A stretch of 64,000 nucleotides of DNA from Roseithermus sacchariphilus (GTDB lineage Bacteria; Bacteroidota; Rhodothermia; Rhodothermales; MEBIC09517), in assembly GCA_003285105.1 (NCBI GenBank), contig CP030158.1, forward strand, positions 1,898,501 through 1,962,500. Direction: 5' to 3'. The notes below the pieces were generated by a model. That model worked only from the letters and a program-made list of their open reading frames with translations. It made no database searches and was not told the DNA's origin. Below, one piece after another: positions 35,382-49,228 of this stretch. The translations under genes and the position numbers were made by a program. Position 1 is the stretch's first letter, and every line of letters begins with the position of its first letter.

Positions 35382-36386
35382 TCATCCCATGGGCAGGTGA
35401 TGGCGGGCGGCGTAGCGGCCGGTGGCGTGGTGCGAGAGCTGCCGCTCGATGTCGGCCAGGAGGCTGCTCGCGCCCAGCCGGAACAGCGTGTTCGAGAGCC
35501 AGGCGTCGCCCAGTTCTTCCTTCATCAGGATCAGGTAGTTGAGGGCTTCCTTTGCCGTGCGGATGCCGCCGGCCGGCTTGAAGCCCACCTTGAAGCCCGT
35601 GCGGGCCTCGTACTCGCGGATCGTGCGCACCATGACCAGGCTCACGGGCAGCGTGGCGTTGACGGGTTCCTTGCCCGTGGACGTCTTGATGAAGTCGGCG
35701 CCGGCCATCATGCACACCTTGCTGGCCATGGCCACGTGCCAGAGCGGGCCCAGCTCGCCCGTGGCCAGGATGGCCTTCATGTGGGCGGGGCCACAGGCTT
35801 CCCGCATGGCGCGGACCTCGTCGTAGAGCGCCTGCCAGCGGCCGCACAGCACGTGCTCGCGGGTGATGACGATGTCGATCTCCCGGGCGCCGGCGTCCAC
35901 CGAGGCTTCGATCTCGGCCAGGCGGGTGGATAGCGGGCTGAGGCCGGCCGGGAAGCCGGCGGAGACGGCCGCCACGGGGATGCCGCTGCCCTCCAGCGCC
36001 GCCAGGGCATCCGGGATGCGCCGGTGGTAGACGCACACGGCGCCGACGGTCAGGGGGCGCTCGCCCATGCCCAGCGCGTCGAGCAGGTCGCGCCGGATCG
36101 GCTGGCGCGCCTTGGCGCAGAGGCGGCGGACGTTGCCGGGCGTGTCGTCGCCCGCCAGGGTGGTCAGGTCGATGCAGGTGACGGCACGGAGCAGCCAGGC
36201 CGCCTGCCAGGCTTTCTTGACGGAGCGACGCGTGCCCAGCGTGGCCGCCCGGCGCTGTGTAGCGCTCGGATTGACCCGCGTGGCCCGCACCCAGTCCAGG
36301 TCGAGCGGGGTGCCGGGGTTGTGCGGCAGGACGGGAGCCGCCGGTGACGCCGTCCGGGACGCCGTCGGCGAAGCGAGTGCAGCCAT
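35382..36386 (-). CDS. deoC: Deoxyribose-phosphate aldolase
   Basis: The 334-residue protein has the DERA motifs: the first active-site Lys in the GPAHMKAILATGEL region and the Schiff-base Lys in ADFIKTSTGK, plus VGFKPAGGIRT. It splits 2-deoxyribose 5-phosphate to glyceraldehyde 3-phosphate and acetaldehyde. At 334 residues it belongs to the longer DeoC type, not the 220-residue bacterial type. Together with the nucleoside phosphorylase at the window start and the adjacent ALDH it fits deoxynucleoside catabolism. Confidence 0.94.
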   Translation of the reverse strand: MAALASPTASRTASPAAPVLPHNPGTPLDLDWVRATRVNPSATQRRAATLGTRRSVKKAWQAAWLLRAVTCIDLTTLAGDDTPGNVRRLCAKARQPIRRDLLDALGMGERPLTVGAVCVYHRRIPDALAALEGSGIPVAAVSAGFPAGLSPLSTRLAEIEASVDAGAREIDIVITREHVLCGRWQALYDEVRAMREACGPAHMKAILATGELGPLWHVAMASKVCMMAGADFIKTSTGKEPVNATLPVSLVMVRTIREYEARTGFKVGFKPAGGIRTAKEALNYLILMKEELGDAWLSNTLFRLGASSLLADIERQLSHHATGRYAARHHLPMG

Positions 36387-36466
36387 GAGCGGAGGAGGAA
36401 ATAGCGACAGAGACAGGGCCGAAGGCCGGAAACGGAGAAGGGGGCAGACTTGTTCGCAGCCGCGCG

Positions 36467-36573
36467 GCCGTCAGCCGTCAGCTTTCAGCCGTCAGCCGTC
36501 AGATCCTCCCCTTGCGAAGGGGCGGTGTCGCGCGGCGACGGAGGGGTCGTTCTGCCGTCGCATCGGTCTCCAC
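36467..36573 (+). repeat. Partial copy of the heptad/hairpin composite repeat
   Basis: Heptads (GCCGTCA, GCTTTCA) lead into hairpin CTCCCCTTGCGAAGGGG and a second hairpin GTCGC-GCG-GCGAC, then GGAGGGGT. It matches the start of the copy at 63719 in the same orientation but stops after about 105 bp. The rest of the 36387-36624 gap shows no gene. Confidence 0.8.
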
Positions 36574-36624
36574 TGCGTAACATCAGGGACTGAGGAGGCG
36601 CAGCGGATATTCCAAGCGGATAGT

Positions 36625-37155
36625 TCAGAGGATGCGCAGCGAGTACCCGCGCTCGCCCAGCTCTGCGAACTCGAGCGTCTCGCCCCGCTCCAGCGCCTCC
36701 CGGATGGCGTCCAGGTCGGCGCTGACCTTCACCCGGCGAAACGGCTCCGGCAAGGCCTCCGGGTCGACGTGCAGGTCCACCGGGGCGCGGCCGCCGCGGC
36801 GGGCCACCGTCAGCCGGTAGCGGCGCGTCTCGACGGATTTCAGGCCGTGTTGCTGGAAGAACAGGACCAGCCGGTTCTTGAGGTAGGCGGCCTGGTCCTC
36901 GTCGCGGCGGGCGCGGTCGGTGAGGCGGCGGGCTTCCTCGCGCCGCGCCGCCGCCCGCGCCTCCAGCTCTCGGATGAGCGCAGCGTAGTTGTCGAGCTTG
37001 ACGTCTCGTTCCTCGATCAGATCCTCGAACCAGGCATCGAGGGTCGCCTCAACCTCGGGGTCCGTCACGTCGCCGCCCAGCGCCTCCAGGCGGTCGTAGA
37101 GCGCCTGCAGGTCCTCGGAGATGGCGAACAGCGTGCGATGGGAAGAATCGGGCAT
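36625..37155 (-). CDS. Siphovirus Gp157-like protein
   Basis: The 176-residue protein has a long charged N-terminal coiled coil (LYALSEDL-like start, here LFAISEDLQALYDRLEAL) followed by a short beta domain (VETRRYRLTVARRG). This is the layout of Gp157 proteins, which were described in streptococcal phages and often sit beside recombination genes. No other phage gene is near, so it is either a domesticated gene or a chromosomal member of the family. It lies 26 nt downstream of a lipoprotein gene. Confidence 0.72.
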   Translation of the reverse strand: MPDSSHRTLFAISEDLQALYDRLEALGGDVTDPEVEATLDAWFEDLIEERDVKLDNYAALIRELEARAAARREEARRLTDRARRDEDQAAYLKNRLVLFFQQHGLKSVETRRYRLTVARRGGRAPVDLHVDPEALPEPFRRVKVSADLDAIREALERGETLEFAELGERGYSLRIL

Positions 37156-37181
37156 GGGACAGGGGGGATCGGAAAAAGGGC

Positions 37182-37712
37182 TCAATCGATGTAAAACAGC
37201 CATTCCAGCGCTTCCGCGGTGTCTTCCCGAAACCGGATGCGCAGCAGATGCGGGATGGCCTCCTCGCGTTCGTAGACGAAGGTGTCGCCCTCGTGCCGGT
37301 CGGGCGGCCCGAGGCGCGCCTCGACGTCCCGGCGGGATTGCCCCACCTGCAGCCCCTCCGGCGAGGTGTAGGCCGGGCCGGTCACGCGGACGTCGCGCAT
37401 GAGCATCTTCTCCGGCGTCACGTACACGGTGAACGCCAGTCCGTCATACTGATACGTGCGCAGGGTGTCGATCTGAGACGGAACGTGGAGGTTCCGGATC
37501 GTGTCCCGGTGCACCCGGTCGGGGGGTGGCAGGCGGTCCAGGATGGGCAGGGTCGCGGCCTCGGGCGGGCGGGTGAACACCGCCTGGATGAGCGCGGCGA
37601 GGTCCGGGCGGGCCGGAGAGGACGGGGCGGGTCCGGGCGGGGCGGCGGAGCGGTTGGCGGCGCAGCCACTCCCCAGCAGGCCCAGGAGGACGACGAGCAG
37701 ACAGCGGTGCAT
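37182..37712 (-). CDS. Lipoprotein with BamE-like domain
   Basis: The 176-residue protein has a clear lipobox (LLGSGC, Cys17) after a short hydrophobic signal, a Pro/Ala-rich linker and a C-terminal region (GLQVGQSRRDVEARLGPPD then FVYERE) that resembles the BamE/SmpA fold. That points to an envelope-assembly accessory role, but no BAM gene is adjacent. Confidence 0.7.
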   Translation of the reverse strand: MHRCLLVVLLGLLGSGCAANRSAAPPGPAPSSPARPDLAALIQAVFTRPPEAATLPILDRLPPPDRVHRDTIRNLHVPSQIDTLRTYQYDGLAFTVYVTPEKMLMRDVRVTGPAYTSPEGLQVGQSRRDVEARLGPPDRHEGDTFVYEREEAIPHLLRIRFREDTAEALEWLFYID

Positions 37713-37861
37713 GAGGGGGTGGGATGGACGAAGGGGGATGGCCGCTGGCTACGAGGCGGGAGGGAATCAGGATCCCCGGAACGATGAACGAGGCGCCGCC
37801 TCAAAAACCCTCCGGCCCGGCTTGATCCGGGAGGCCGGGACCCGCACCTTCCCTGCGATGT

Positions 37862-39640
37862 ATGCGCCATCCGTTGCCGCCGCTCATGCCTGAGACCCCG
37901 ACCGACGCCCCCACCCGGTCCGCCGGCCGCCGCCCGTCCCGGAGCTGGCTCTGGGCGATGCCGCCGGACAACTACGCGATCTACTGCAAGACGAATACCT
38001 TTGCGATCCGGAAGGTGGGCCGGGCGGCGCTGGCACGGATCCGTCCGGGAGATCGGATCTTCGCCTACCTCTCCGGGTCCCGCGTGATCGCCGGGCTGTT
38101 CGAGGCGACGAGTGCCGCGTTCGAGGACACCACCCCGCTCGTGCCCGGCGAGCACTACCCGCACCGCGTGCGGGTGCGCCCGGTCGTCCAGCTCTCGAAG
38201 GAAGCCTGGGTGCCCTACGAGGCCTTCAGCGATCAGCTCGACGTGGTCCGGGAGTATGCCGACTTCCGCAGCGTCGTGCAGCAGGTGCTGCATCCGCTGC
38301 CGGCGGTCGATGAAAAGGTGCTGACCTTCCTCGTGCGGGCGCGGTCCGCGGACATGGAGCAGGCCATGGCGGCCCTGGAGGCGTGGAAGCAATTGCGCCA
38401 GGCGGCGCCCCGGGCGGCCTCTCCGGCGCCCCGGCCCGCGCCGGCCGTGCACGAGCCGCCGGCCGCCTACGCGCCCCCGCCGGACGTCGACCGCGCGCAG
38501 GCGATGGCGGCCTTGCTGGCCTACCTGGATGCTCGCGGCTTCGTCTACGAGCCATGGCAGGTGGCCGCGTTCGTGGCGGCGCTGCGGACCAAGCCCTTCG
38601 TCATCCTGGCCGGCGTGACGGGCACCGGCAAGTCGAAGCTGCCCGTCCTCGTGGCCGAGGCCACGGGGGCCGACGCCGCGCTCGTGCCGGTGCGGCCGGA
38701 CTGGACGGACAGCAGCGATGTGCTCGGCTACGTCGACCTCCAGGGGCGCTTCCGGCCGGGGGTGTTGTTGCAGCAGGCCCGCGCGGCCGCCGAAGCGCCC
38801 CACCGGTATCACCTGGCCGTGCTGGACGAGATGAACGTGGCGCGGGTGGAACACTACTTCGCGGAGGTGCTGAGCCGCATCGAGGCGCGGCGACCCGCCG
38901 GCGGCGGGTATGCCAGCCCACCCCTGCTGGCGCTGGATCTGCCGCCGGAAGCCGCGGCGTGGGGGCGGGTCGGGCTGCCGCCCAACCTGGCTCTCGTCGG
39001 CACGGTCAACATGGACGAGAGCGCCCACGCGTTCAGCCGCAAGGTGCTCGACCGCGCCTTCACGCTCGAACTCGCCGAGGTCGACCTCACCCGCTGGCAG
39101 GCCCGGAGCGAGCGGCCGGTGCCAGAGCCGGGGTGCTGGCCGGCCGGCGTGTGGCAGCCGCGGGGGCTGCGGCTGAGCGAGGTGGCGCTGACCGAGGCCG
39201 AGCGGGAGCGGGTGGAGGCGGTCGTGGCGGAGCTGGAGGCCGCCAACGTCTTTCTGGCGCCGGCCCAGCTGCACGTCGCCTATCGCACCCGCGACGAGGC
39301 GGCCCTGTTCGTGCTTCACGCCACCGAGATCGCCGATGCCTTTCGGACCCGGACCGGCGCGCCCGTCGACCCGCTCGATCTGGCGCTGCACATGAAGGTG
39401 CTGCCCCGGTTGATGGGCGGCAGCCGGCCGGTGTGGCAGGCCGTGCAGGGGCTGCTCGGCCGGGCCGTCACCGGGGCGGGCATCCGCACCGACGACGAGG
39501 CCCGGGCCGTGCTCGACGTCTGGGACGAGGCCGGGCAGCCCGCCGCGCTCCCCGAAGCCCGCTTCCCCCGCACCGCCGCCCGCCTCTGCCTGATGATGAG
39601 CCGCCTGCTGGCCGACGGCTTCACCTCCTACTGGGTCTGA
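37862..39640 (+). CDS. EVE-domain/McrB-type AAA+ fusion (modified-DNA restriction ATPase)
   Basis: The 592-residue protein starts with an EVE (PUA-like) domain at about 25-150 (SWLWAMPPDNYAIYCKTN; GDRIFAYLSGS), a Pro/Ala linker, and a McrB-like AAA+ domain with Walker A GVTGTGKS, Walker B HLAVLDEMN and sensor GTVNMDES. EVE domains bind modified bases and McrB motors drive modification-dependent restriction. No McrC-type nuclease is adjacent; a DUF2357 nuclease lies at 51119. An in-frame ATG at 37886 is an equally possible start. The integron array begins 210 nt downstream, after a heptad-repeat tract. Confidence 0.85.
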   Translation: MRHPLPPLMPETPTDAPTRSAGRRPSRSWLWAMPPDNYAIYCKTNTFAIRKVGRAALARIRPGDRIFAYLSGSRVIAGLFEATSAAFEDTTPLVPGEHYPHRVRVRPVVQLSKEAWVPYEAFSDQLDVVREYADFRSVVQQVLHPLPAVDEKVLTFLVRARSADMEQAMAALEAWKQLRQAAPRAASPAPRPAPAVHEPPAAYAPPPDVDRAQAMAALLAYLDARGFVYEPWQVAAFVAALRTKPFVILAGVTGTGKSKLPVLVAEATGADAALVPVRPDWTDSSDVLGYVDLQGRFRPGVLLQQARAAAEAPHRYHLAVLDEMNVARVEHYFAEVLSRIEARRPAGGGYASPPLLALDLPPEAAAWGRVGLPPNLALVGTVNMDESAHAFSRKVLDRAFTLELAEVDLTRWQARSERPVPEPGCWPAGVWQPRGLRLSEVALTEAERERVEAVVAELEAANVFLAPAQLHVAYRTRDEAALFVLHATEIADAFRTRTGAPVDPLDLALHMKVLPRLMGGSRPVWQAVQGLLGRAVTGAGIRTDDEARAVLDVWDEAGQPAALPEARFPRTAARLCLMMSRLLADGFTSYWV

Positions 39641-39642
39641 TT

Positions 39643-39775
39643 TCAGCGGTCAGCGATCAGGGTGCTGGCCTGGCACGATGGTGCTTGCCGTGCGGCTGCG
39701 GGCTACTCGCTGACGGCTGTGGGCTGCGGGCTACTCGCTGAAGGCTGTGGGCTGACCGCTGACGGCTTCCGGGCT
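39643..39775 (-). repeat. Heptad-repeat tract after the EVE-McrB gene
   Basis: Degenerate 7-bp units (GGCTGCG, GGCTACT, CGCTGAC, GGCTGTG) run through this gap. They match the heptad arms of the composite repeat in the orientation opposite to the copies at 51007 and 63719. The internal hairpins are absent. Confidence 0.7.
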
Positions 39776-39849
39776 TTTGCATCATGGTAGGATGTTGCAA
39801 TTCGGGGAAAAAGGGTGTAGGATAGAATGCGTCGTGTTGGATAATGTGT

Positions 39850-39856
39850 GTTATAC
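39850..39856 (+). other. Orphan integron core site (GTTATAC)
   Basis: GTTATAC is the exact complement of the GTATAAC box at 40479, as expected for the 5' end of cassette 1. No partner box lies upstream, so this could be an attI remnant or the right half of a lost attC. Confidence 0.55.
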
Positions 39857-39884
39857 AGCCCTGCCACCGTAGCACAATTCGAGC

Positions 39885-40466
39885 TTGGAGCAGTTGTCCG
39901 AAATCCTGACTCCGGCAGTCGTTAGCACAGCCGTCACTGCTGTCCTTGCGCCTCTCCTTTTCTTCTGGCTCAAGCGCCGTGACGAGAAGAGGAAGCGCAA
40001 CTTCGAGGTCCGGTACGCTGAGTACAAGCACTACCTCCGCACGCTAGACGAGATTGCTTCGGCTTCGCGCGTCGAGACCGAGCGCTTCTTTTCTGAGACC
40101 ATCGCAACCACGTTCAAAACGATCTTGACCGAGCCGGAAGGCAGCGACGACGCCCTCCTCAGTATGAACGACGCTCTGCTCGGCCTCACGTCACGGCTCG
40201 GCCAGACGATTACGAAGGCAGAGGGCGAGTTGCACGGCCTACGTCTCGTCTGTAGTGAGAAGCTGCTCGTCATGATTGACGAGTACGTTCAGCTTCAGCG
40301 CGACCTAATGAGCGCCACCTCTGATATGATGGCGAACTGGAAGCAGATCGACATCAACAACCCCACGGCTTCGATGCCGGGCGATGTCCAAGAGAAAGGT
40401 GAGCAAGCCCAACGCCTGTACCGAGACATAGTAGACCAAATGAGGAAGGAGCTTGATATCAGCTAG
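39885..40466 (+). CDS. Cassette 1: membrane-anchored protein of unknown function
   Basis: The 193-residue protein from a TTG start has one N-terminal TM helix (about 8-29; VVSTAVTAVLAPLLFFWL) followed by a basic stop-transfer (KRRDEKRKR) and a helix-rich cytoplasmic domain. No family is recognised. It is the only ORF of a 751-bp cassette whose stop codon lies 13 nt before its attC. The type I membrane plus helical-domain layout recalls some small defence effectors, but nothing specific supports that. Confidence 0.65.
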   Translation: MEQLSEILTPAVVSTAVTAVLAPLLFFWLKRRDEKRKRNFEVRYAEYKHYLRTLDEIASASRVETERFFSETIATTFKTILTEPEGSDDALLSMNDALLGLTSRLGQTITKAEGELHGLRLVCSEKLLVMIDEYVQLQRDLMSATSDMMANWKQIDINNPTASMPGDVQEKGEQAQRLYRDIVDQMRKELDIS

Positions 40467-40478
40467 AACCACCGGGCT

Positions 40479-40607
40479 GTATAACCCGCGGCTGCAGGCC
40501 GACAACGGGCTCCAGCGCTCTTGCTTCGTCCGGGCCTCGGCGTCTACGTTGCCATTCCCACCGTCCACGGTCGCTGCCCGTTGCGGCTGAGCCGCAATCT
40601 GTTATAC
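40479..40607 (+). other. attC site of cassette 1
   Basis: R'' GTATAAC (40479-40485) and R' GTTATAC (40601-40607) are perfect complements. Inside them, GCGGCTGCAGGCCGACAACG pairs with the GTTGCGGCTGAGCCGC region near 40580, leaving a few bulged bases, as in functional attC hairpins. 129 bp. Confidence 0.8.
40521..40551 (+). promoter_or_regulatory. Promoter-like pair inside attC 1
   Basis: TTG at 40521-40523, 21-nt spacer, TACGTTG at 40545-40551. It fits the -33/-7 pattern and would transcribe cassette 2 and beyond. Confidence 0.4.
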
Positions 40608-40733
40608 CGCGCTCCCTCATTCTGAAGCGATGGAAAGCAGCCTCGGCCCGTGCTCGTCTCGGCCCCTCTCGCCTACCGGCGGCGGCCGTCCCCGGCGCGG
40701 GCGTGGGGGCGCTTCGGCCTCCGGTCGGTCGCC
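40608..40733 (+). other. Cassette 2 body: no credible gene
   Basis: The 252-bp cassette holds 126 bp before its attC. The sequence is GC-rich, and the open frames that cross it run through the attC into the next cassette. It is best read as a non-coding cassette; a small RNA or spacer function is possible. Confidence 0.5.
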
Positions 40734-40859
40734 GGGTAACAAGGCGCTTCAGCCGACCAACGGGCGTGCGGGTTTTGCCTTGTTCGGGCGTCGCGTCTAC
40801 ATTGTTATGAATCATCGTTGTGCCTTCAGCCCATTGCGGCTGAGCTTCAACCGTTATGC
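40734..40859 (+). other. attC site of cassette 2
   Basis: R'' GGGTAAC (40734-40740), R' GTTATGC (40853-40859). GCGCTTCAGCCGACCAACG pairs with the ATTGCGGCTGAGC region near 40834. The outer boxes match only in the TAAC/GTTA core, so this hairpin is weaker than its neighbours. 126 bp. Confidence 0.75.
40774..40804 (+). promoter_or_regulatory. Promoter-like pair inside attC 2, upstream of the CBASS operon
   Basis: TTTG at 40774-40777, 20-nt spacer, TACATTG at 40798-40804: a near-consensus Bacteroidota promoter, 86 nt upstream of the first CBASS gene. It occupies the same place in the attC as the pair at 40521-40551. Confidence 0.5.
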
Positions 40860-40889
40860 AGCAGATCGGAGCCAAGGTGGAATAGCGAG

Positions 40890-41471
40890 ATGTCTAACAT
40901 CGGACTGCCCACTGACTACACAGGTCGCACCGATGACCGTGATGAGTCCCAAGAGTGGTCTTGCCACCGGGTGTGTGTCCTGCTGAGCGGAGGTGTCGAT
41001 TCCTCTGCCTGCGTGGGATACTACGTATCGAAGGGGTACGACGTAGGTGCCCTGTTCATTGACTATGGTCAGCCTCATGCGGACAAGGAGGCTGCCGCTG
41101 CTACGGCTATCTCAGAGCACTACGGTATTGCACTGAAAAAGCTCACCGTCCAAGGCTATGCACCACCGGATGGTTACGTCCCCGGTAGGAACGCTGTCCT
41201 ATTGAGCCTGGCCCTCATGGCCACAACGTTCACCTGTGGCCTGATCGGGCTCGGCATCCATAGCGGAACTCCGTACGCTGACTGCACTTCCGACTTTTGC
41301 GGCAAGATGCAGAAGGTGTGTGACCTGTACACGGGCGGACAGGTGCAGATCGACGCGCCGTTCGCGGAGTGGACGAAAAGCGAGATCTGGGACTACGCCC
41401 GTGCGCATGGCGTCCCGCTCGACGTGACTCACACTTCGAACCCCGACGACCTGGTTGCCCACTACGAGTAG
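40890..41471 (+). CDS. cap9: Type IV CBASS QueC-like enzyme (Cap9)
   Basis: The 193-residue protein has the N-type ATP pyrophosphatase loop SGGVDS (33-38), FIDYGQPHADKEAAAA and the QueC-like YADCTSDFCGKMQ segment. QueC makes 7-cyano-7-deazaguanine (preQ0). This copy is shorter than QueC (about 225) and lacks the C-terminal four-Cys zinc cluster, ending THTSNPDDL...HYE. It begins 36 nt after the cassette boundary and is followed 11 nt later by a TGT-like gene. Operon content marks it as the type IV CBASS homologue, not part of tRNA queuosine synthesis. The cap9 name follows CBASS usage as I recall it. Confidence 0.8.
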   Translation: MSNIGLPTDYTGRTDDRDESQEWSCHRVCVLLSGGVDSSACVGYYVSKGYDVGALFIDYGQPHADKEAAAATAISEHYGIALKKLTVQGYAPPDGYVPGRNAVLLSLALMATTFTCGLIGLGIHSGTPYADCTSDFCGKMQKVCDLYTGGQVQIDAPFAEWTKSEIWDYARAHGVPLDVTHTSNPDDLVAHYE

Positions 41472-41482
41472 CTACAGACCGA

Positions 41483-42502
41483 ATGCTCATGCTGGCGAGA
41501 AGCAGTAGCCTTCACCACCCATCGGGTGTAACCATCCAGACGCCACTCCTGGTGCCGTCCTTTTCGAGCAGAGGCTTCGGCTTCAGGCAGGATGGGAGTG
41601 CTGAGATCAAGACGATATACGAGGTAGCAAGCGAGTTTCTCGCCGACACCATGCTCGTTAGCGCCTACGATCTGCACCAAGGCCACCTGGGACCAGTAGA
41701 GCACGCTATCGTTGACCTCACGTTCGTAGACAGTGGCGGGTACGAGACGTCCGATGAACCGGACCTTTCGAGCATCTACGACCAGCCCGTCGAGGCAAAG
41801 CCGTGGTCGGTAGCCGCCTTGAAGGAGGTGCTCGATGGTTGGTCTGAGCACGTGCCGGCGGTGTTCGTCAGCTTCGACAGCCCTGACATGCGGCAGCCTC
41901 TCGCCGATCAGGTAAAGGCTGCCAAGTTACTTCTGGACGCTTACCCAGACCAGTTCCACGCGCTCCTGGTCAAGCCCGAGACCGAGAGCCAGCGGTACGT
42001 TCAGGTCAAGCTCGTCGAGGAGCAGACGAAGCTTCTCGACGGGTTCCACATCGTAGGCTTTACCGAGAAGGAGTTGGGTGGGTCGATTATCAAACGGATG
42101 GAAGCGCTGGCCACGATCCGCGAGGCCATGGATGAGGCGGGCGTCACAGCGCCCATCCACGTATACGGCAGTTTGGATCCCATTACCTCAGCACTGTACT
42201 TCCTGTCCGGGGCAGAAATCTTCGACGGGCTGGCGTGGCTGCGCTACGGTTTTGTAGACGGCGTGGCGTGCTACTACCACAACTTTGCCGCTCTCAAGGA
42301 AGACATTGGGATCGATAAGGACGACGACTTCATCAGAGGCAAGATGATGCAGGACAACCTGGGATACCTCACACGACTTCGAAATCAGATGGCAGAGTTC
42401 CTTCGATCTGGCGGGACTGACTTCGAGATCTTCGAACACAACGCAGGCCTTTTACGGACAAGCTACGAGCGGTTTTGTGAGAAGATCGGGAGGGTAGCGT
42501 AA
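41483..42502 (+). CDS. cap10: Type IV CBASS TGT-like protein (Cap10)
   Basis: The 339-residue protein has a tRNA-guanine transglycosylase-like barrel: TPLLVPSFSSRGFG, the base-binding motif DSGGY at 83-87 (DSGGFQ in TGT), FVSFDSPD and IHVYGSLDPITSALYFLSGA near the C-terminal barrel strands. The TGT zinc motif (CxCxxC...H) is absent. In type IV CBASS this protein works with the QueC-like enzyme, reportedly to attach a deazaguanine base to the CD-NTase protein (recalled, not checkable here). ATG 41483 or 41489. Its stop TAA overlaps the CD-NTase ATG (TAATG). Confidence 0.8.
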   Translation: MLMLARSSSLHHPSGVTIQTPLLVPSFSSRGFGFRQDGSAEIKTIYEVASEFLADTMLVSAYDLHQGHLGPVEHAIVDLTFVDSGGYETSDEPDLSSIYDQPVEAKPWSVAALKEVLDGWSEHVPAVFVSFDSPDMRQPLADQVKAAKLLLDAYPDQFHALLVKPETESQRYVQVKLVEEQTKLLDGFHIVGFTEKELGGSIIKRMEALATIREAMDEAGVTAPIHVYGSLDPITSALYFLSGAEIFDGLAWLRYGFVDGVACYYHNFAALKEDIGIDKDDDFIRGKMMQDNLGYLTRLRNQMAEFLRSGGTDFEIFEHNAGLLRTSYERFCEKIGRVA

Positions 42503-43425
42503 TGGGTGGCGGCGGAGGGGGCGGTGGCTACATCCGGTCGGAGCCCGAAAAACTGTTACGCAAGATCCGTCAGTCCGATGAACGGACGAAGGACAAGGAG
42601 TACGAAGCGGAAGTCGAGCACCACTTGAACTCCCTTTTGAAGGACTACAACGATCGCAACACGGAGGCAATCAAGCGTCACCTGGAGGAAATCAGGAAAG
42701 CACTGGAGAAGGATCTCGAAGGGACGTTAGACCTCCTGTACGGCGGTTCGGTCGCCAAGCACACCTACGTTGAAGGCCTGAGCGATGTGGACTCTCTCGC
42801 CGTGCTGGATAGCTGCGAACTGGCTAACGGCTCCCCGCAGGCTGCCAAGGAGTATTTTGCCCAGAGGCTCCGCGAGCGCTTTCCCAAGACCGAAATCGAC
42901 GTAGGCAAGCTGGCTGTGACCGTGCGCTTCTCCGACGTGGAGGTACAGTTGCTTCCGGCAGTGAGCTGCAAAAGCAACGTCCAGATACCTGATGCGTCGG
43001 GAAAGAAGTGGTCTGAGATCAACCCTGAGGGGTTCAGGAAGGCACTAACTCAGACTAACCAGGCGAATGGAAATAAGGTGGTCCCGGTGATCAAGCTGGC
43101 GAAAGCTATCATCAACAACCTGCCGGAAAAGCAGCGCATCTCTGGGTACCACGCCGAGTCTCTGGCGGTGGAGGCCTTCAAGAACTACAAAGGTGAGCAG
43201 CGCCTCAAGCCCATGTTGCAGCACTACTTTCGAACTGCCGCCAACCTGGTGCGCCAGCCCATCCGCGACCGCACGGGGCAGTCCGTCCACGTCGATGACT
43301 ATCTCGGTGCCCCGAACAGCCTCGGCAGGCGAATTGTCTCCGATGCGATGGGGCGGATTAGCCGGCGCATGAGCAATGCCGACAACGCCGGCTCCGTGGA
43401 CGAATGGCGCAAGATGTCCGACTGA
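42502..43425 (+). CDS. CD-NTase (cyclic-oligonucleotide synthase) of type IV CBASS
   Basis: The 307-residue nucleotidyltransferase has the GGS loop at 81-83 and the DVD metal-binding pair at Asp95 and Asp97, with a third acidic residue at about 145-147 (SDVEVQLLPA). The C-terminal helical domain (about 180-300) is typical of CD-NTases, which make cyclic di- or trinucleotide alarm signals on phage infection. The N-terminus is Met followed by eight Gly and a Tyr, then a charged helix. The product nucleotide cannot be predicted. Start ATG overlaps the upstream stop. Confidence 0.87.
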   Translation: MGGGGGGGGYIRSEPEKLLRKIRQSDERTKDKEYEAEVEHHLNSLLKDYNDRNTEAIKRHLEEIRKALEKDLEGTLDLLYGGSVAKHTYVEGLSDVDSLAVLDSCELANGSPQAAKEYFAQRLRERFPKTEIDVGKLAVTVRFSDVEVQLLPAVSCKSNVQIPDASGKKWSEINPEGFRKALTQTNQANGNKVVPVIKLAKAIINNLPEKQRISGYHAESLAVEAFKNYKGEQRLKPMLQHYFRTAANLVRQPIRDRTGQSVHVDDYLGAPNSLGRRIVSDAMGRISRRMSNADNAGSVDEWRKMSD

Positions 43426-43434
43426 CAGTAGTAC

Positions 43435-44037
43435 ATGGAACGAGCCGACCTAAAGAAACAAGCGAAGGTCGTGGACATGATGCTGACTGGCCATTCGATC
43501 CTGGCGCGTCAGTACAAGTTCAAAGCCATGGCCTTGGAGATCCTCCTAGCCGCCGCTTCTACCGTCCTGGTGGCACTGACCTTCGCTGATGCCGGCGTAC
43601 TTGCATTCTTCGGAATGAGCGCCGAGGCTGGCAGGATCGCGCTGGGGGTGTGCTCAATCCTGGTCTTCTTCCTATCCATCGTCTCGCTGATCGTGGACTG
43701 GGAGGGGAAGGCTGGTAAGCACAAGGAGGCGTTCGATACGCTGGTGCGGCAGAAGGCAGAGTGGCGCGACATGCTGACCAACTACGACACCTACGATGCA
43801 CGGGAGAGGGCGGAGTTCTCCAAGAGGTCATCCCTTGTGCTGGGCAATCTCATCCCGATCCCGGACGCGAAGTTCAACTACCTCAAGGCACGCCATCACA
43901 GAAAGCTTCTGCTGAGCAAGACGGTTAGTGCGAATCCGGGCGTATCATACTTTGCCCTACGGTGCCGCGTGTTCTTCCGGGGGATCAGGAAAGCCTTTCA
44001 GGCCCAACTTCCAGATGACAGAGGTTCCCAGAAATGA
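43435..44037 (+). CDS. Two-TM SLATT-like CBASS effector
   Basis: The 200-residue protein has a short charged N-terminal helix, two TM helices (about 33-53 and 66-88; LEILLAAASTVLVALTF and GVCSILVFFLSIVSLIV) and a cytoplasmic helical domain beginning DWEGKAGKHKEAFDTL. This is the SLATT/2TM pattern of membrane-disrupting effectors encoded beside CD-NTases. On binding the cyclic nucleotide it would permeabilise the inner membrane. It starts 9 nt after the CD-NTase stop and overlaps the next gene by 4 bp (ATGA). Confidence 0.78.
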   Translation: MERADLKKQAKVVDMMLTGHSILARQYKFKAMALEILLAAASTVLVALTFADAGVLAFFGMSAEAGRIALGVCSILVFFLSIVSLIVDWEGKAGKHKEAFDTLVRQKAEWRDMLTNYDTYDARERAEFSKRSSLVLGNLIPIPDAKFNYLKARHHRKLLLSKTVSANPGVSYFALRCRVFFRGIRKAFQAQLPDDRGSQK

Positions 44038-44720
44038 AGCTGCACATATACGAATCACCTGTCCACCTGTACGCCAAGGCCTACTACATCGCCAAGAGGG
44101 CGGTCCTGGACGAGGGCTATGCCGACGAGGTTGATTGGCAGTACTCGACCTCGCTCGACACCCTTGACGAGCCCACGTTTCTCCGTGAGGCGGCCTGGGT
44201 AATCTTGTGTAGCGGGATGCGCGAAAAGGTAGTCAGCGATAAGTTCCAGGCCATCAGCAAGGCCTTTCTGCACTGGACCTCGGCACGTGACATCGTGGAG
44301 AACGCCGCATCCTGCGAGCGTGAGGCACTTCTCCACTTCAATAACGTCCGCAAGATCGGCGCGATCACGCAGGTCGCCGACATGGTCTGCCACCTGGGGG
44401 TGGCCGAGATCGTCCGCAACCTCCGTTCATGTGGGGTGCCCTACCTGGAACGGTTCCCCTTCATTGGCACCGTCACGGCCTTCCACCTGGCTAAGAACAT
44501 CGGGCTACCGTGCGCAAAGCCCGACCGACACCTTGCCAGCATCGCTAACCGCCTGGGGTTCACCGACGCTCACGCCCTGTGCTCCGAAATCGCAGGAGTA
44601 ACGGACGAGCCAATCCCGGTTGTGGACATTGTGCTCTGGAGGTTTGCGACGCTTCACCGTACCTACCTCGACCGTTTCTTGGCCGCTTTCACCAGAGGGG
44701 AGGTGGAGTGGGAAGCATGA
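44034..44720 (+). CDS. cap11: Type IV CBASS OGG-like helix-hairpin-helix glycosylase (Cap11)
   Basis: The 228-residue protein carries an HhH-GPD domain: hairpin at about 134-158 (GVPYLERFPFIGTVTAFHLA) and the catalytic Asp164 in KPDRHL, as in thermostable 8-oxoguanine glycosylases. The Lys that gives OGG enzymes their lyase activity is not obvious in the hairpin, so it may be a monofunctional or non-DNA enzyme. An OGG-like gene is the third ancillary component of type IV CBASS along with QueC- and TGT-like genes. ATGA overlap with the effector gene implies coupled translation. The name follows CBASS usage from memory. Confidence 0.78.
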   Translation: MKLHIYESPVHLYAKAYYIAKRAVLDEGYADEVDWQYSTSLDTLDEPTFLREAAWVILCSGMREKVVSDKFQAISKAFLHWTSARDIVENAASCEREALLHFNNVRKIGAITQVADMVCHLGVAEIVRNLRSCGVPYLERFPFIGTVTAFHLAKNIGLPCAKPDRHLASIANRLGFTDAHALCSEIAGVTDEPIPVVDIVLWRFATLHRTYLDRFLAAFTRGEVEWEA

Positions 44721-44773
44721 CTCAGAACCTTCTGCGCTTGCATTCTCCGTTCTGCCGGTGCAAAGATGTGTAG
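44717..44773 (+). CDS. Possible 18-residue micro-ORF overlapping cap11
   Basis: An ATG overlaps the cap11 stop (ATGA), the same coupling seen upstream. It reads MTQNLLRLHSPFCRCKDV and stops at the end of the first 36-bp repeat. The second repeat copy can encode the same LHSPFCRCKDV ending. It may be chance. Confidence 0.2.
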   Translation: MTQNLLRLHSPFCRCKDV

Positions 44774-44844
44774 GCAATAGCCCTTGCCAAATCATCAGGC
44801 AGAAAGAGTTGCATTCTCCGTTCTGCCGGTGCAAAGATGTGTAG
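44738..44844 (+). repeat. Two perfect 36-bp direct repeats with a 35-bp spacer
   Basis: Copies at 44738-44773 and 44809-44844 (TTGCATTCTCCG ... GATGTGTAG) are identical, separated by 44774-44808. Each has TTGCA/TGCAA able to pair. A 12-bp inverted repeat (GTAGGCAATAGC at 44770-44781 with its complement at 44868-44879) brackets the second copy. It lies between cap11 and the cassette's attC. The geometry resembles a minimal CRISPR but no cas gene is present. Confidence 0.85.
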
Positions 44845-44883
44845 TGGAATACATCACAAGCCCGTTTGCTATTGCCTACTGCT

Positions 44884-45005
44884 GCATAACAAGCCACTCC
44901 GGCGGACAAAGGGCTGGACAGGCCTGCCTGTTACCTCCGCTGGCGATTCCATAGCTTCACTGAAACGATCACTGGTCCTTCGCCGCTGATCGGCGGACCG
45001 TAGCC
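44884..45005 (+). other. attC site of the CBASS cassette
   Basis: R'' GCATAAC (44884-44890) is the exact complement of the cassette's 5' core GTTATGC at 40853. GCCACTCCGGCGGACAAAGG pairs partly with CCTTCGCCGCTGATCGG. The right core reads CGTAGCC where GTTAGCC is expected, as if one T were lost. 122 bp. Confidence 0.7.
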
Positions 45006-45022
45006 GGACGGACACGAAACAT

Positions 45023-45448
45023 ATGCTCAAGCAGAGGCCGAACGATGAGGAGACCATTCAGAGCGCCGTGCGCGAGATCAACGAGCACTGGCGAACAGGG
45101 GAATACGACCGCATTGGTGCACGGCTGGCGGGCGATGTGATCATCGCTCCCCCGGGGTTTGATGGGCGGGTTCGCGGCCGTGACGCCTATGTCCAGTCTT
45201 ATCGGGACTACGACCAGGGTGTAAGGACGCTGGACTTTGCGGCCGGCGATCCGCAGGTTGACCTAATCGGGGATGTGGCGGTGGCCGTCACGCCGTTCCG
45301 GGTCGTATATGAAGTCCACGGTACCCGACATCAGGAGAGCGGGCACGACATTCTCGTGTTCTCGCGCTTACACGGGGAATGGATGGTGGTGTGGCGAACG
45401 ATGCAGGTTGCCGCTGCGGGAACAACGCCGGTTGACGATACCGGCTAA
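45023..45448 (+). CDS. Cassette 4: SnoaL/DUF4440-like (NTF2-fold) protein
   Basis: The 141-residue protein has the cone-shaped NTF2-like pattern: an N-terminal helix pair (ETIQSAVREINEHWRTGEYD), GRVRGRDAYVQSYRDY, and a closing strand set ending GEWMVVWRTMQ. Such proteins are common integron cargo and act as hydrolases, isomerases or binding proteins; activity here is unknown. The TAA stop lies within the R'' box of its own attC, a typical compact cassette arrangement. Confidence 0.78.
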   Translation: MLKQRPNDEETIQSAVREINEHWRTGEYDRIGARLAGDVIIAPPGFDGRVRGRDAYVQSYRDYDQGVRTLDFAAGDPQVDLIGDVAVAVTPFRVVYEVHGTRHQESGHDILVFSRLHGEWMVVWRTMQVAAAGTTPVDDTG

Positions 45449-45503
45449 CGACAGTATGTGGCGAACGGCACTACGCGCCCGCCGCTGATGCTGAGCGTTA
45501 TGC
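45443..45503 (+). other. attC site of cassette 4
   Basis: R'' GGCTAAC (45443-45449), R' GTTATGC (45497-45503). GGCTAACGACAGTATGTGGCG pairs with CGCCGCTGATGCTGAGCGTTA with small bulges. At 61 bp it is the shortest and cleanest attC of the array. Confidence 0.85.
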
Positions 45504-45521
45504 AGCATAGATGCTTCCGAT

Positions 45522-45590
45522 GTAGAACAATCTGCCGCTCAGGCGTAAAAATCTGAAAATGAAAAACGTACTCTGCTTGGACAGTTATGC
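45522..45590 (+). other. Degenerate attC-like segment before the antitoxin
   Basis: GTAGAAC (45522-45528) and GTTATGC (45584-45590) could be R'' and R' boxes of a decayed site; the arms pair poorly. The GTTATGC overlaps the antitoxin ATG. No gene lies in 45449-45586. Confidence 0.3.
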
Positions 45591-45781
45591 CTGCCACGCT
45601 TTCAGCTAAACAAGCCTCACTGCGCCTGATCGAGCGCCTCGATGAGGATGTCACATTCGAGGACATCATCTATGAGCTTTATTTTCTTCAGAAGGTTGAG
45701 CGCGGGTTAGAGGACGTCAAGGAAGGACGAACCCTCTCGCACGAGGAGGTGCGCAAGGAGTTTGAGAAATGGCTCTCGTAA
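45587..45781 (+). CDS. Cassette 5: antitoxin of a RelE/ParE-type pair
   Basis: The 64-residue protein (MPATLSAKQASLRLIERLDE ... LSHEEVRKEFEKWL) fits small antitoxins with an acidic C-terminal wrapping helix. It overlaps the toxin gene by 13 bp. The pair should stabilise the array against loss, a common job of such cassettes. Confidence 0.8.
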   Translation: MPATLSAKQASLRLIERLDEDVTFEDIIYELYFLQKVERGLEDVKEGRTLSHEEVRKEFEKWLS

Positions 45782-46083
45782 GGTGGTCATCGGCAGCAAA
45801 GCAGGATCTGGCCGCCATCCGAGATTACTACGAGAGCAGTTCGCCCAGCTATGCGCGTACCGTCATCAGCAAGCTCTTTGGCTCTGTTACGAACTTGAAG
45901 CAGTTTCCGCGCATGGGGCGAGAAGTGCCAGAGATCGAGGACGAAGCGTTCAGGGAGTTGATCGTGGAGGGCTACCGAATCGTGTATTTGGTAGCAGGAG
46001 AAGAGGAAGAAACGGAGGTAGAGGTGCTAACGATAGCGCATGGTAGGCAAGACCTGTTGAAGAAGCTATCTCGGCGTAGCTGA
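45769..46083 (+). CDS. Cassette 5: RelE/ParE-family toxin
   Basis: The 104-residue protein has the ParE/RelE fold signature: VRWSSAAKQDLAAIRDYYES, SVTNLKQFPRMGREVPE, then FRELIVEGYRIVYLV and the terminal VLTIAHGRQDL. The family either cleaves ribosome-bound mRNA (RelE) or poisons gyrase (ParE); the sequence looks nearer ParE. No recognisable attC follows, so this is the truncated or terminal end of the array. Confidence 0.85.
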   Translation: MALVRWSSAAKQDLAAIRDYYESSSPSYARTVISKLFGSVTNLKQFPRMGREVPEIEDEAFRELIVEGYRIVYLVAGEEEETEVEVLTIAHGRQDLLKKLSRRS

Positions 46084-46132
46084 AGATGCTGCCCAGCCCC
46101 TGTATTCCCTCCAGCCCTTCCCCTTACCCCCC

Positions 46133-46444
46133 ATGCTCCGCTACCGAAAGCGCCTCGCCAGAATCATCGCCGCCGTGGCCCTCGGGGTTGCCGTCGTGGT
46201 GGGGGCGGTGTACTGGAACGAGGCGCGCAAGGAGGTGGTGTTCCTGTGCGGCAACTTCGGGCCGGGCGTCGCAGAGGCGAGCGTGCGGCGGCAACTCGAC
46301 ACGGGCCATTTCCTGCGCTACCGCACCGAGGACGGCCCGGCGGGCCGGCGCATCGTGGCGGACAGCCCGCTGACGCTCGGGCTCTACCGGTGCGTCGTCG
46401 AACTGGAGGCGGACGGGACGGTGCGGGCGGCGCGGGTGGAGTAG
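46133..46444 (+). CDS. Small single-pass membrane protein
   Basis: The 103-residue protein has a TM helix at about 10-28 after a basic N-terminus (MLRYRKRLAR), followed by a periplasmic domain with two Cys (FLCGNFGPG, LYRCVVEL). No family recognised. Its base composition matches the chromosome rather than the island, so the island ends before it. Its stop is 17 nt from that of dapD. Confidence 0.55.
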   Translation: MLRYRKRLARIIAAVALGVAVVVGAVYWNEARKEVVFLCGNFGPGVAEASVRRQLDTGHFLRYRTEDGPAGRRIVADSPLTLGLYRCVVELEADGTVRAARVE

Positions 46445-46460
46445 CGCCGGGGGGAGCGGC

Positions 46461-47312
46461 TCAGGCGGGGCCGGTCCGCAGCGCGCTCTCCAGGGTCGTG
46501 GCCGCGTCGGTGCGGGCATCGCGGTATTTGACGATGACCGGCGTATAGAGCGCCAGCCCGTGCTGCCGGGCAAAGGCCGAGTCCGCCGGTCGGCTGCCGG
46601 GCACCACCACGGCCCCGGCCGGGACCTCCAGCGTGCCGGTTTCGTCCGCCGTGTACACACGCTCGTGGACGAGGTCGTAGAGCCGCGTCGAGCGCGTCAG
46701 GATGACGCCGGGGGCCAGCACGGCCCGCTCGCGGATGAGGCAGCCCTCGTAGATCCCACAGCCGCCCCCGATGAAGGCGTCGTCTTCCACGATCACCGGC
46801 AGCGCACCGGCCGGCTCCAGCACCCCGCCGATCTGAACGGCCGCCGAGAGATGCACCCGCTGCCCGATCTGGGCACAGCTCCCCACCAGCGCGTGCGAGT
46901 CGATCATCGTCCCCGTATCCACGTAGGCGCCGACGTTCACGTACATCGGCGGCATGCAGACGACGCCGGGCGCCACGTAGGCGCCGCTGCGGATGGCCGA
47001 CCCTCCCGGGACGATGCGGACGCCATCCTCCAGACGCATCGCGCGGGGAGGATAGGTGTGTTTGTCGAAGAAGGCGAACGGCCCCGTGCTGAAGTCCGTC
47101 AGCCTGCCGAGCCGGAAGCCGAGGAGGATGCCCTGCTTGATCCAGGCGTGCGTCGTCCACGAGCCGTCCGAGGTGCGCGTTGCTGCTCGCAGGGTACCCC
47201 GGTTCAGGCTGTCGATCAACGCCGACACGGCGGCCTCGGCCTCGGGCCGGTCCAGCGCATCGGCGGGCTGGGACGTCAGCGCCTCGATGCGCCGGCGCAG
47301 GTCGTCGGTCAT
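46461..47312 (-). CDS. dapD: Tetrahydrodipicolinate N-succinyltransferase
   Basis: The 283-residue protein has a helical N-terminal domain (TDDLRRRIEALTSQPAD) and a left-handed beta-helix with hexapeptide repeats, including VNVGAYVDTGTMIDSHALVG and GGVLEPAGALPVIVEDDAFIG, typical of DapD. It transfers succinyl from succinyl-CoA to tetrahydrodipicolinate, so this organism uses the succinylase route to meso-diaminopimelate and lysine. It is the last gene of dapB-dapA-dapD on this strand. Confidence 0.96.
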   Translation of the reverse strand: MTDDLRRRIEALTSQPADALDRPEAEAAVSALIDSLNRGTLRAATRTSDGSWTTHAWIKQGILLGFRLGRLTDFSTGPFAFFDKHTYPPRAMRLEDGVRIVPGGSAIRSGAYVAPGVVCMPPMYVNVGAYVDTGTMIDSHALVGSCAQIGQRVHLSAAVQIGGVLEPAGALPVIVEDDAFIGGGCGIYEGCLIRERAVLAPGVILTRSTRLYDLVHERVYTADETGTLEVPAGAVVVPGSRPADSAFARQHGLALYTPVIVKYRDARTDAATTLESALRTGPA

Positions 47313-47391
47313 GGGGAGGGGGGAAGGTCGATGGAAACGGTCGAAGGGGCGCGGCGAGGAGGCGTCCGTTGCTCCGGCGCCCGGCCGGGGT

Positions 47392-48291
47392 CTACGCCGC
47401 AACGCTGATGAGCGTTTCGAAGGCTTCGAGGACCCGGCGGCGGGTGGTGTCCGGCATGGGGACGAGCGGCAGGCGCAACGTGGGTTCGATCAGCCCCATC
47501 TCGGCGAGGACCGCTTTGATCGGGATCGGGTTGGTGTCGAAGAAGCACGCCCGCATGGCCGGGAGCAGGTCCATGTGCAGCCGCCGCGCCTCGGTCACGT
47601 CGCCGGCCAGGGCCGTCCGCACCAGCGTGCTGAAGCGATGCGGCAGGGCGTTGCTGATGACCGAGATCACCCCGTCGCCCCCGAGCAGCACGAGCGGCAA
47701 CGTCCACTCGTCATCGCCGGCATAGACGGCCAGGTGGGCCGGTCGGTGCCGCAGGATGTCGCTGATCTGAGCCAGGTTGCCGGAGGCTTCCTTGATGCCC
47801 ACCACGCTCGGGACCTCCTCGGCCAGGCGCAGGACGGTGTCCGCCTGCAGGTTGAAGCTCGTCCGCCCCGGGACGTTGTAGAGGATGATGGGCAGGTCGG
47901 TGGCGTCGGCGATGGCGGCGACGTGGGCGCGGAAGCCCTCCTGCGAGGGCTTGTTGTAGTAGGGACCCACGACGAGCTGCCCGTCGGCGCCGGCGGCGGT
48001 GGCCTGACGGGCGAAGGTGACGCTCTCGGCGGTGGCGTTGCTGCCGGTGCCGACGATCACCGGCACCCGGCCGGCCGTGTGCGTGACGGCCGTCTCGACC
48101 AGGCGCACGCGCTCGTCGAACGTGATGGTGGGGTTCTCGCCCGTCGTGCCCAGCACGACGAGCGCCTCCACGCCGCCCTCGATCTGGTAGTCGATCAGCC
48201 GGCGAAACGCGGCTTCGTCGAGCGCGCCGTCTGCCGTGAACGGAGTGACGAGTGCCGGGGCGGTTCCGGTGAACAGGGGCGTGCGGCTCAT
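47392..48291 (-). CDS. dapA: 4-hydroxy-tetrahydrodipicolinate synthase
   Basis: The 299-residue aldolase-fold enzyme has LGTTGENPTI (GTTGE pyruvate-binding motif), the Tyr in YYNKPSQEG and PIILYNVPGRTS, and the Schiff-base Lys in VGIKEASG. It condenses pyruvate with aspartate semialdehyde, the committed step of the lysine/DAP pathway. It follows dapB by 10 nt and precedes dapD by 79 nt. Residues that bind feedback lysine in some DapA proteins cannot be judged by eye. Confidence 0.97.
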   Translation of the reverse strand: MSRTPLFTGTAPALVTPFTADGALDEAAFRRLIDYQIEGGVEALVVLGTTGENPTITFDERVRLVETAVTHTAGRVPVIVGTGSNATAESVTFARQATAAGADGQLVVGPYYNKPSQEGFRAHVAAIADATDLPIILYNVPGRTSFNLQADTVLRLAEEVPSVVGIKEASGNLAQISDILRHRPAHLAVYAGDDEWTLPLVLLGGDGVISVISNALPHRFSTLVRTALAGDVTEARRLHMDLLPAMRACFFDTNPIPIKAVLAEMGLIEPTLRLPLVPMPDTTRRRVLEAFETLISVAA

Positions 48292-48301
48292 GGGTTCGGG
48301 C

Positions 48302-49072
48302 TCAGCTTGCGGTGGTCAGAGAGAGGGTGGGGGCGGGCAACCCGTCTTGCAGGGCATCCTCCAGCGTGAACAGCCCGCGTCGCCCGGGCAGCCAGGCGGC
48401 GGCCTGGAGCATCCCCGCGGCAAAGCCGTCCCGGCTGGTGGCCTCGTGGGTGAGCAGAAGCCGGTCGTGCGGGCCTTCCACGGCGACGGTGTGTGTGCCG
48501 ATGACGTGCCCGGTGCGGGTGGACGTCACGTGCAGCGCGTCCGGGTCGATGCGCTGGTGCTGTGTCTCCGTGGCCAGGTGGGTCTTCCGGCCGAGGCCGT
48601 CGAGCAGGATGCGGGCCAGCATCAGGGCCGTGCCGCTGGGGCTGTCCGCCTTGCGGGTGTGGTGGACCTCGTGGAGCGCCACGTCGTAGTCCGGCAGCCG
48701 GTCCAGCAGCGGCGTCAGGTGCCGCAGCACCTGCGTCAGCAGGGCGATGCCAAGGGAGAAGTTGGCGGCGTAGAGCACCGCCGCGTCGTGGGCCTCCACC
48801 CACTGCCGGACGCGCGGCAGGGCGTCGTACCAGCCGGTCGTGCCCACGACGAGCGGCATCCCCCAGCGGCAGCACCGCTCGATGTGATCGAGGACGACGC
48901 CCGGCAACGACACGTCGATGGCGACGTCGGCTCCGTTGAAGGCCGCCAGGCCCTCGGCCTGCGACAGCGGCCGGCTCGTGTTGAACCGCGCCACCACCTC
49001 GTCGCCGCGCTGACGGGCCAGGTGCTCGACGGCCGTGCCCATCTGGCCGGTTCCGATCAGGGCGATGCGCAT
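48302..49072 (-). CDS. dapB: 4-hydroxy-tetrahydrodipicolinate reductase
   Basis: The 256-residue protein begins MRIALIGTGQMGTAV (nucleotide-binding loop; Gly-rich motif at 7-12) and has VVGTTGWY, AANFSLGIALL and the catalytic EVHHTRKADSPSGTA segment. It reduces the DapA product to tetrahydrodipicolinate. The ATG at 49072 gives the family N-terminus; upstream in-frame residues from 49144 are not conserved. First gene of the dap operon, facing the palindrome at 49177-49196. Confidence 0.96.
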   Translation of the reverse strand: MRIALIGTGQMGTAVEHLARQRGDEVVARFNTSRPLSQAEGLAAFNGADVAIDVSLPGVVLDHIERCCRWGMPLVVGTTGWYDALPRVRQWVEAHDAAVLYAANFSLGIALLTQVLRHLTPLLDRLPDYDVALHEVHHTRKADSPSGTALMLARILLDGLGRKTHLATETQHQRIDPDALHVTSTRTGHVIGTHTVAVEGPHDRLLLTHEATSRDGFAAGMLQAAAWLPGRRGLFTLEDALQDGLPAPTLSLTTAS

Positions 49073-49176
49073 GGAGACAACAGGCGTTCGTGGGAGGACG
49101 ATGCGGTCGTCCCCCAGGATAACAGCCCGCTCGCGCGGCCCCAAAAAAATGGACGAATCGAACGGTTATAACAAAA

Positions 49177-49196: not shown

Positions 49197-49228
49197 CGAT
49201 CCCGTGTATTCCCTGACTCCGCCGCCCT

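What the first reader, a model, noticed from the sequence alone, without database searches (positions are those of the whole stretch)
42502..42531. CD-NTase starts with Met plus eight glycines: a likely N-terminal modification tail
Seen: residues 2-9 of the CD-NTase are all Gly, encoded by varied Gly codons (GGT, GGC, GGA, GGG), so this is not a simple nucleotide repeat. Known: Met before Gly is normally removed, leaving an N-terminal Gly; I recall recent work reporting that type IV CBASS Cap9/Cap10 conjugate a 7-deazaguanine base to the CD-NTase protein (citation not verifiable here). Inference: the flexible Gly tail is the acceptor presented to the TGT-like active site.
Basis: partly seen in the sequence, partly recalled or inferred. 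Interest (0 to 1): 0.78.

Follow-up and report, generated by a model that had tools for sequence, protein, structure and literature searches.

The report
Acceptor tail on a CBASS enzyme
A bacterial anti-phage enzyme begins with a run of eight glycines, which matches a recently published site where a modified guanine-like base is attached to the protein; the same kind of tail turns out to mark unrelated immune proteins in sister gene clusters.

Summary
In detail: the CD-NTase at 42502-43425 reads Met + 8 Gly with mixed codons, the only ATG followed by six or more Gly codons in the 4.8-Mb genome. It sits in a complete type IV CBASS operon (Cap9/QueC, Cap10/TGT, CD-NTase, 2TM effector, Cap11/OGG).

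The idea is published: in type IV CBASS, Cap9 joins 7-carboxy-7-deazaguanine to the CD-NTase's N-terminal Gly. One step is corrected: QueC-like Cap9 is the ligase; TGT-like Cap10 binds the modified tail.

My survey: Gly2 in 24 of 25 type IV CD-NTases. Seven other CD-NTases lack the tail.

Two things are new to me. First, the tail is portable: about 54 CD-NTase-free operons with QueC, TGT-like and usually OGG genes carry it on a ThsB-like TIR (53 of 54 Gly2), and one archaeal operon carries it on a metallo-beta-lactamase; no other protein kind in these operons has it (0 of 266). Second, this window's Cap9 lacks the four-cysteine zinc knuckle of its relatives, so modification here may be impaired.

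The parts
42502..42531 (+). Met + Gly2-Gly9 + Tyr10: N-terminal acceptor tail of the CD-NTase
   Evidence: Codons read directly; unique in genome; predicted disordered, pLDDT < 50 at residues 1-12
42488..42494 (+). Shine-Dalgarno GGGAGGG, 7 nt before the ATG
   Evidence: Sequence
42502..43425 (+). CD-NTase (CdnD)
   Evidence: PADLOC PDLC00790 E 3e-122; Pfam SMODS 4.5e-13; PDB 9ntn/9nto CdnD 8e-79
40890..41471 (+). Cap9, QueC-like ligase
   Evidence: PADLOC QueC 2e-53; Pfam QueC 1e-26; PDB 9nto Cap9 1e-31
41430..41471 (+). C-terminal end of Cap9, where the four-cysteine zinc knuckle of relatives is missing
   Evidence: Compared with 24 type IV Cap9 ends; frames read
41483..42502 (+). Cap10, TGT-like protein expected to bind the modified tail (a second in-frame ATG at 41489 fits the relatives' start better)
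   Evidence: PADLOC TGT 4e-104; PDB 9ntn Cap10 2e-59
43435..44037 (+). 2TM (SLATT-type) effector
   Evidence: PADLOC 2TM effector 1e-33
44034..44720 (+). Cap11, OGG-like protein
   Evidence: PADLOC OGG 5e-78

Best explanation
The Met-Gly8 start is the acceptor tail of a type IV CBASS CD-NTase. After Met removal (inferred), the disordered tail would reach the active site of the QueC-like Cap9, which would activate 7-carboxy-7-deazaguanine (CDG) with ATP and join it to the N-terminal amine (shown experimentally in a relative, not here). Cap10, a TGT-fold protein, would bind the modified end (structure of a relative). The tail belongs to the QueC-TGT module and not to the CD-NTase as such: sister modules carry the same kind of tail on TIR and metallo-beta-lactamase proteins, so it is best read as a portable conjugation tag.
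For: Complete operon by profiles, with closest PDB matches to the very CdnD, Cap9 and Cap10 structures of the deazaguanylation work, 9ntn/9nto. Literature: PMC11996544, PMC13279940 (NDG on G2; G2D blocks modification and defence; MGGS consensus), PMC13329287. Gly2 in 24 of 25 type IV CD-NTases including archaeal ones; none of 7 non-type-IV CD-NTases has a GG tail. In the module operons GG at positions 2-3 is 0 of 266 for the other five protein kinds and 0 of 14 for other TIRs, but 53 of 54 module TIRs have Gly2 once an adjacent or upstream Met is discounted. Tails of both proteins are predicted disordered. TIR-side QueC keeps SGGxDS, an aromatic-x-Asp motif (FPDQ in 47 of 53) and the Zn cysteines. 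The host has candidates for the CDG-supply genes: two QueD-like PTPS genes, a QueE-like gene and FolE.
Against: No chemistry was measured here. This window's Cap9 lacks the zinc knuckle. One type IV CD-NTase has Ala2 and one module TIR has Ala2 (L043), so Gly is not strictly needed. The window lacks the usual Ser4. Neither tail length nor purity of the run has a shown role. The TIR and metallo-beta-lactamase steps rest on co-occurrence alone.
Confidence: 0.85

Rival explanations
1. The tail is a relic in this genome: Cap9 has lost its zinc knuckle, no longer conjugates, and the CD-NTase N-terminus stays unmodified.
For: All 24 other type IV Cap9 proteins end in the four-cysteine knuckle; this one does not in any forward frame. 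The papers treat the knuckle as part of the QueC fold (PMC13279940, PMC13329287).
Against: All other Cap9 motifs (SGGVDS, DYGQ, PGRN, YADC, PFxxxxK) are intact and align at 47% identity to an intact relative; the other four genes of the operon are full length. Whether the knuckle is essential in Cap9 was not found tested.
Confidence: 0.3
2. The Gly run is only a flexible linker or a translation-start feature without a modification role, lengthened by drift.
For: Run length varies from 0 to 8 among homologues, and Ser, Glu or Ala interrupt it.
Against: Gly2 is nearly invariant while length drifts; the tail is absent from CD-NTases outside the module and appears on unrelated proteins inside it; G2D abolishes modification and defence in a relative (PMC13279940).
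Confidence: 0.05
3. Another N-terminal modification that uses Gly, such as N-myristoylation-like acylation, is made on the tail instead of NDG.
For: An N-terminal Gly is the usual acceptor for acylation in eukaryotes (general knowledge).
Against: The operon encodes the QueC and TGT proteins of the published NDG route, and no acyltransferase was seen among its five genes.
Confidence: 0.02
4. The tail must be glycine, because Cap9 accepts only an N-terminal glycine.
For: 24 of 25 CD-NTases and 53 of 54 module TIRs have Gly2.
Against: Roseivirga (MASSKD) and L043 (MAGSGGGSG) have Ala2 with the module genes present.
Confidence: 0.4

Closest known systems
Type IV CBASS with NDG-modified CdnD (Wassarman et al. 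2025; PDB 9ntn, 9nto)
   Same: Same gene set; CD-NTase, Cap9 and Cap10 have their best sequence matches in the PDB there; N-terminal Gly tail
   Different: Eight uninterrupted Gly instead of MGGS; Cap9 lacks the zinc knuckle
qatABCD (QatB/QatC)
   Same: QueC-family protein paired with a protein whose disordered N-terminus starts Met-Gly (MGTS)
   Different: QatB is not a CD-NTase and no TGT is described; QatC carries large extensions and Thr/Thr in place of Tyr/Asp (PMC13279940)
Thoeris ThsB TIR proteins (for the sister operons)
   Same: Module TIR matches the ThsB_TIR family (E 9e-26) and solved TIR/ThsB folds
   Different: An added ~30-residue N-terminal extension with the MGG tail; encoded with QueC, TGT and OGG; no ThsA seen in the proteins scanned
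QueC cluster 4 with PfkB neighbours (PMC13329287)
   Same: QueC-like protein next to a PfkB-family gene, mainly in Proteobacteria
   Different: Its stated cysteine motif, CH(x)5CxxCxGCxK, does not fit the TIR-side QueC, CH(x)6CxxCxxC; TIR is not mentioned in that paper

Membership tests
Type IV CBASS | CD-NTase gene | tested here: met
   PDLC00790 3e-122; SMODS 4.5e-13
Type IV CBASS | QueC-like Cap9 and TGT-like Cap10 genes adjacent | tested here: met
Type IV CBASS | OGG-like Cap11 and an effector gene | tested here: met
   OGG 5e-78; 2TM 1e-33
Type IV CBASS | Phage defence | not testable with these tools
   Needs plaque assays
NDG acceptor protein | Gly after the initiator Met | tested here: met
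   24 of 25 homologues
NDG acceptor protein | Unstructured N-terminus | tested here: met
   pLDDT < 50 at residues 1-12, AlphaFold2
NDG acceptor protein | Covalent 7-amido-7-deazaguanine on the N-terminal amine | not testable with these tools
   Needs mass spectrometry
Active Cap9 (QueC cluster 9) | SGGxDS, [Y/F]xQ, RN, YxDC and PF(x)4K motifs | tested here: met
   Read in 40890-41471
Active Cap9 (QueC cluster 9) | C-terminal CE(x)6CxxCxxC zinc knuckle | tested here: not met
   Absent from all three forward frames; present in the 24 relatives
qatABCD | QatA, QatB and QatD partners; Thr/Thr in the QueC active site | tested here: not met
   Neighbours are Cap10, a CD-NTase, 2TM and OGG; Cap9 reads YADC
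Thoeris (sister TIR operons) | ThsB-like TIR | tested here: met
Thoeris (sister TIR operons) | ThsA effector | tested here: inconclusive
   Not found among the operon proteins scanned; not every neighbour was scanned

The most novel reading that the evidence does not exclude
N-terminal deazaguanylation is a portable tag that is not confined to CD-NTases: a widespread operon [PfkB kinase]-[TIR-]TGT-OGG-QueC conjugates a deazaguanine to the MGG tail of a ThsB-like TIR, and an archaeal version (OGG-QueC-TGT with a propeller-SIR2 protein) does so to a metallo-beta-lactamase. It would be a nucleobase-conjugation immunity family with interchangeable immune enzymes.
Probability: 0.6. Interest if true: 0.8.

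Novelty: new member of a known kind. Interest (0 to 1): 0.5.

Why it matters
For the window itself it adds one more bearer of a recently discovered protein modification, with an unusual Cap9 that could test whether the zinc site is needed. More widely, the survey shows that the tail follows the QueC-TGT machinery across two unrelated protein families (CD-NTase and TIR) and, in one locus, a third (metallo-beta-lactamase). That makes a direct prediction: TIR immune proteins in Pseudomonas, Rhizobium and others should carry a deazaguanine on their N-terminus, which one mass-spectrometry experiment could show or exclude. It also suggests how to find further acceptors: look for Met-Gly-Gly starts beside non-metabolic QueC genes.

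Tried and rejected
CD-NTase homologues in viral contigs and phage records: none. Type IV or archaeal Cap10 in viral contigs: none; one TIR-type operon was found (L095). More archaeal MBL-type operons: none in 394 and 23 genomes of the two phyla sampled; four archaeal type IV CBASS loci turned up instead. The idea that a canonical host QueC makes the base: the only full QueC-family match is Cap9 itself. Rfam: nothing in 36000-50000. The full text of the Science paper is not held, so statements about it rest on its preprint abstract and two later papers. Literature searches for a TIR-QueC-TGT system found none in the held library; subscription journals were not searchable.

Full report
Observation. 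The sequence at 42502 reads ATG GGT GGC GGC GGA GGG GGC GGT GGC TAC: Met, eight Gly, Tyr. The start is sound: a GGGAGGG ribosome site lies 7 nt upstream, the ATG overlaps the stop of the preceding gene, and the family profile begins at residue 2. A scan of the complete 4.8-Mb genome for ATG followed by six Gly codons finds this place only. All four Gly codons occur, so this is not a slipped nucleotide repeat.

Setting. The five genes 40890-44720 are QueC/Cap9, TGT/Cap10, CD-NTase, 2TM effector and OGG/Cap11: a complete type IV CBASS operon. The best PDB matches of the first three are the Cap9, Cap10 and CdnD chains of entries 9ntn and 9nto.

What is already known. Wassarman et al. (abstract, PMC11996544) report that in type IV CBASS a 7-amido-7-deazaguanine is linked to the N-terminus of the CD-NTase, that the QueC-like Cap9 makes the conjugate, and that the TGT-like Cap10 binds the modified end. 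Gao et al. (PMC13279940) add that the acceptor is Gly2 after Met loss, that the consensus is MGGS, that G2D blocks modification and defence, and that QatB has a similar MGTS tail. The full Science text was not available.

Survey of type IV loci. I scanned one genome for each of 84,980 species with a Cap10/TGT alignment (the best 80 of 116 relatives were kept) and added archaeal loci and a plasmid. Among 25 type IV CD-NTases, start codons chosen by ribosome site and codon type alone gave Gly2 in 23; a GTG start in L074 adds one more, making 24. The exception is Roseivirga thermotolerans (L006; L078 is the same contig): Met-Ala-Ser-Ser-Lys, with Cap9 (YLDC kept) and Cap10 present. Ala also allows Met removal (general knowledge), so a free small residue, not glycine as such, may be the rule. 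Seven CD-NTases from loci where no QueC or TGT homologue was found show no GG tail, although two start Met-Gly. The window's run of eight is the longest among type IV enzymes; others have 0 to 5 leading Gly, mostly MGGSGGG.

The tail follows the module. The same scan returned about 55 loci without a CD-NTase: an operon of PfkB-like kinase (in the larger clade), TGT-like protein (often with an N-terminal TIR), OGG, QueC and a small ThsB-like TIR, in Alpha-, Beta- and Gammaproteobacteria, Nitrospira, Acidobacteria, Planctomycetes, Clostridiales and archaea. The small TIR begins MGGGSSGSW, MGGSSTGGW, MGGGGGGGR and the like. Of 54 such TIRs, some of them near-identical, 45 were called at MGG without looking at Gly; eight more have MGG directly after a tandem or upstream Met; the last, L043, reads MAGSGGGSG. 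A divergent protein at the same place in Mesorhizobium L061 reads MGGGSGGSY and aligns to the TIR profile (hhalign probability 91.5). The Heimdall archaeal locus L079 has MGGGSSGVY. In a euryarchaeal locus (L064) OGG, QueC and TGT are followed by a propeller-SIR2 protein and a defence-type metallo-beta-lactamase starting MGGGSSIGAS. GG at positions 2-3 occurs in none of 266 QueC, TGT, OGG, kinase or 2TM proteins of these operons and in none of 14 other TIRs. One protein per operon carries the tail, and it is the one expected to be the substrate.

Chemistry of the sister QueC. TIR-side QueC keeps the SGGxDS loop, YGQ, RN and the four zinc cysteines, and has Phe-Pro-Asp-Gln in 47 of 53 where Cap9 has Tyr-x-Asp-Cys: the aromatic stacking and the Asp contact are kept, unlike in QatC. 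Cap9 and TIR-side QueC form two well-supported clades, so acceptor type follows QueC ancestry. AlphaFold2 gives a disordered tail on both the window CD-NTase (pLDDT < 50, residues 1-12) and the TIR (residues 3-13); the TIR model matches solved TIR and ThsB structures.

A caveat for this window. All 24 other type IV Cap9 proteins end in a four-cysteine zinc knuckle; the window's Cap9 does not, in any of the three forward frames, although the rest of its motifs are intact. Intact copies exist in the relatives. Cap9 here may be decayed or a zinc-free variant; one genome cannot tell. The host encodes two QueD-like PTPS proteins (one beside FolE), a QueE-like protein and canonical TGT, but no canonical QueC and no QueF above the cut-off, so CDG could be made there and Cap9 would be its only QueC-type ligase.

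Shown and inferred. Shown here: sequence, operon, conservation, co-occurrence, predicted disorder. Shown by others in relatives: conjugation, G2 dependence, Cap10 binding. Inferred: that this CD-NTase is itself modified (about 0.6, lowered by the Cap9 lesion), and that TIR and metallo-beta-lactamase tails are modified (about 0.6). The 0.85 given to the best explanation is for the tail being, by origin and design, the module's acceptor.

Novelty. The feature in the window is a new member of a known kind. The TIR-side OGG and kinase have no PADLOC model match, and the extension to TIR and metallo-beta-lactamase acceptors was not found in the held literature, but papers that are not held may contain it.

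Noticed in passing
window 41430-41471: Cap9 lacks the four-cysteine zinc knuckle found in the 24 other type IV Cap9 proteins; no forward frame carries it.
   Followed up: partly
L004 6291-10653 and L005-L059, L095: CD-NTase-free operon PfkB / (TIR-)TGT / OGG / QueC / MGG-tailed ThsB-like TIR in more than 50 loci, often with DUF4231, TRAFs-binding and further TIR genes nearby.
   Followed up: yes
L064 5501-10806: Archaeal OGG-QueC-TGT operon with a propeller-SIR2 protein and a metallo-beta-lactamase starting MGGGSSIGAS; L063 shows the same order up to the propeller, where its contig ends.
   Followed up: partly
L006 5579-6505: Roseivirga type IV CD-NTase starts Met-Ala-Ser-Ser although Cap9 and Cap10 are present.
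   Followed up: yes
window 40482-40609 and 40829-40869: attC-like inverted structure (GTATAAC...GTTATAC; bottom-strand fold z = -2.6) and a partial second copy before the operon: possible integron cassette context; three other candidate sites did not fold better than shuffles.
   Followed up: partly
window 44738-44773 and 44809-44844: Perfect 36-bp direct repeat just after the OGG gene.
   Followed up: no
own genome, C1:2356013-2357085: The canonical TGT gene appears split over two overlapping frames.
   Followed up: no
own genome G000: QueD-like and QueE-like genes but no canonical QueC or QueF; 16 of the other genomes of the same order searched have a strong canonical QueC match.
   Followed up: partly
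L009 9369-9605: The TIR reading frame of this module operon lacks its start and tail; possibly broken.
   Followed up: no
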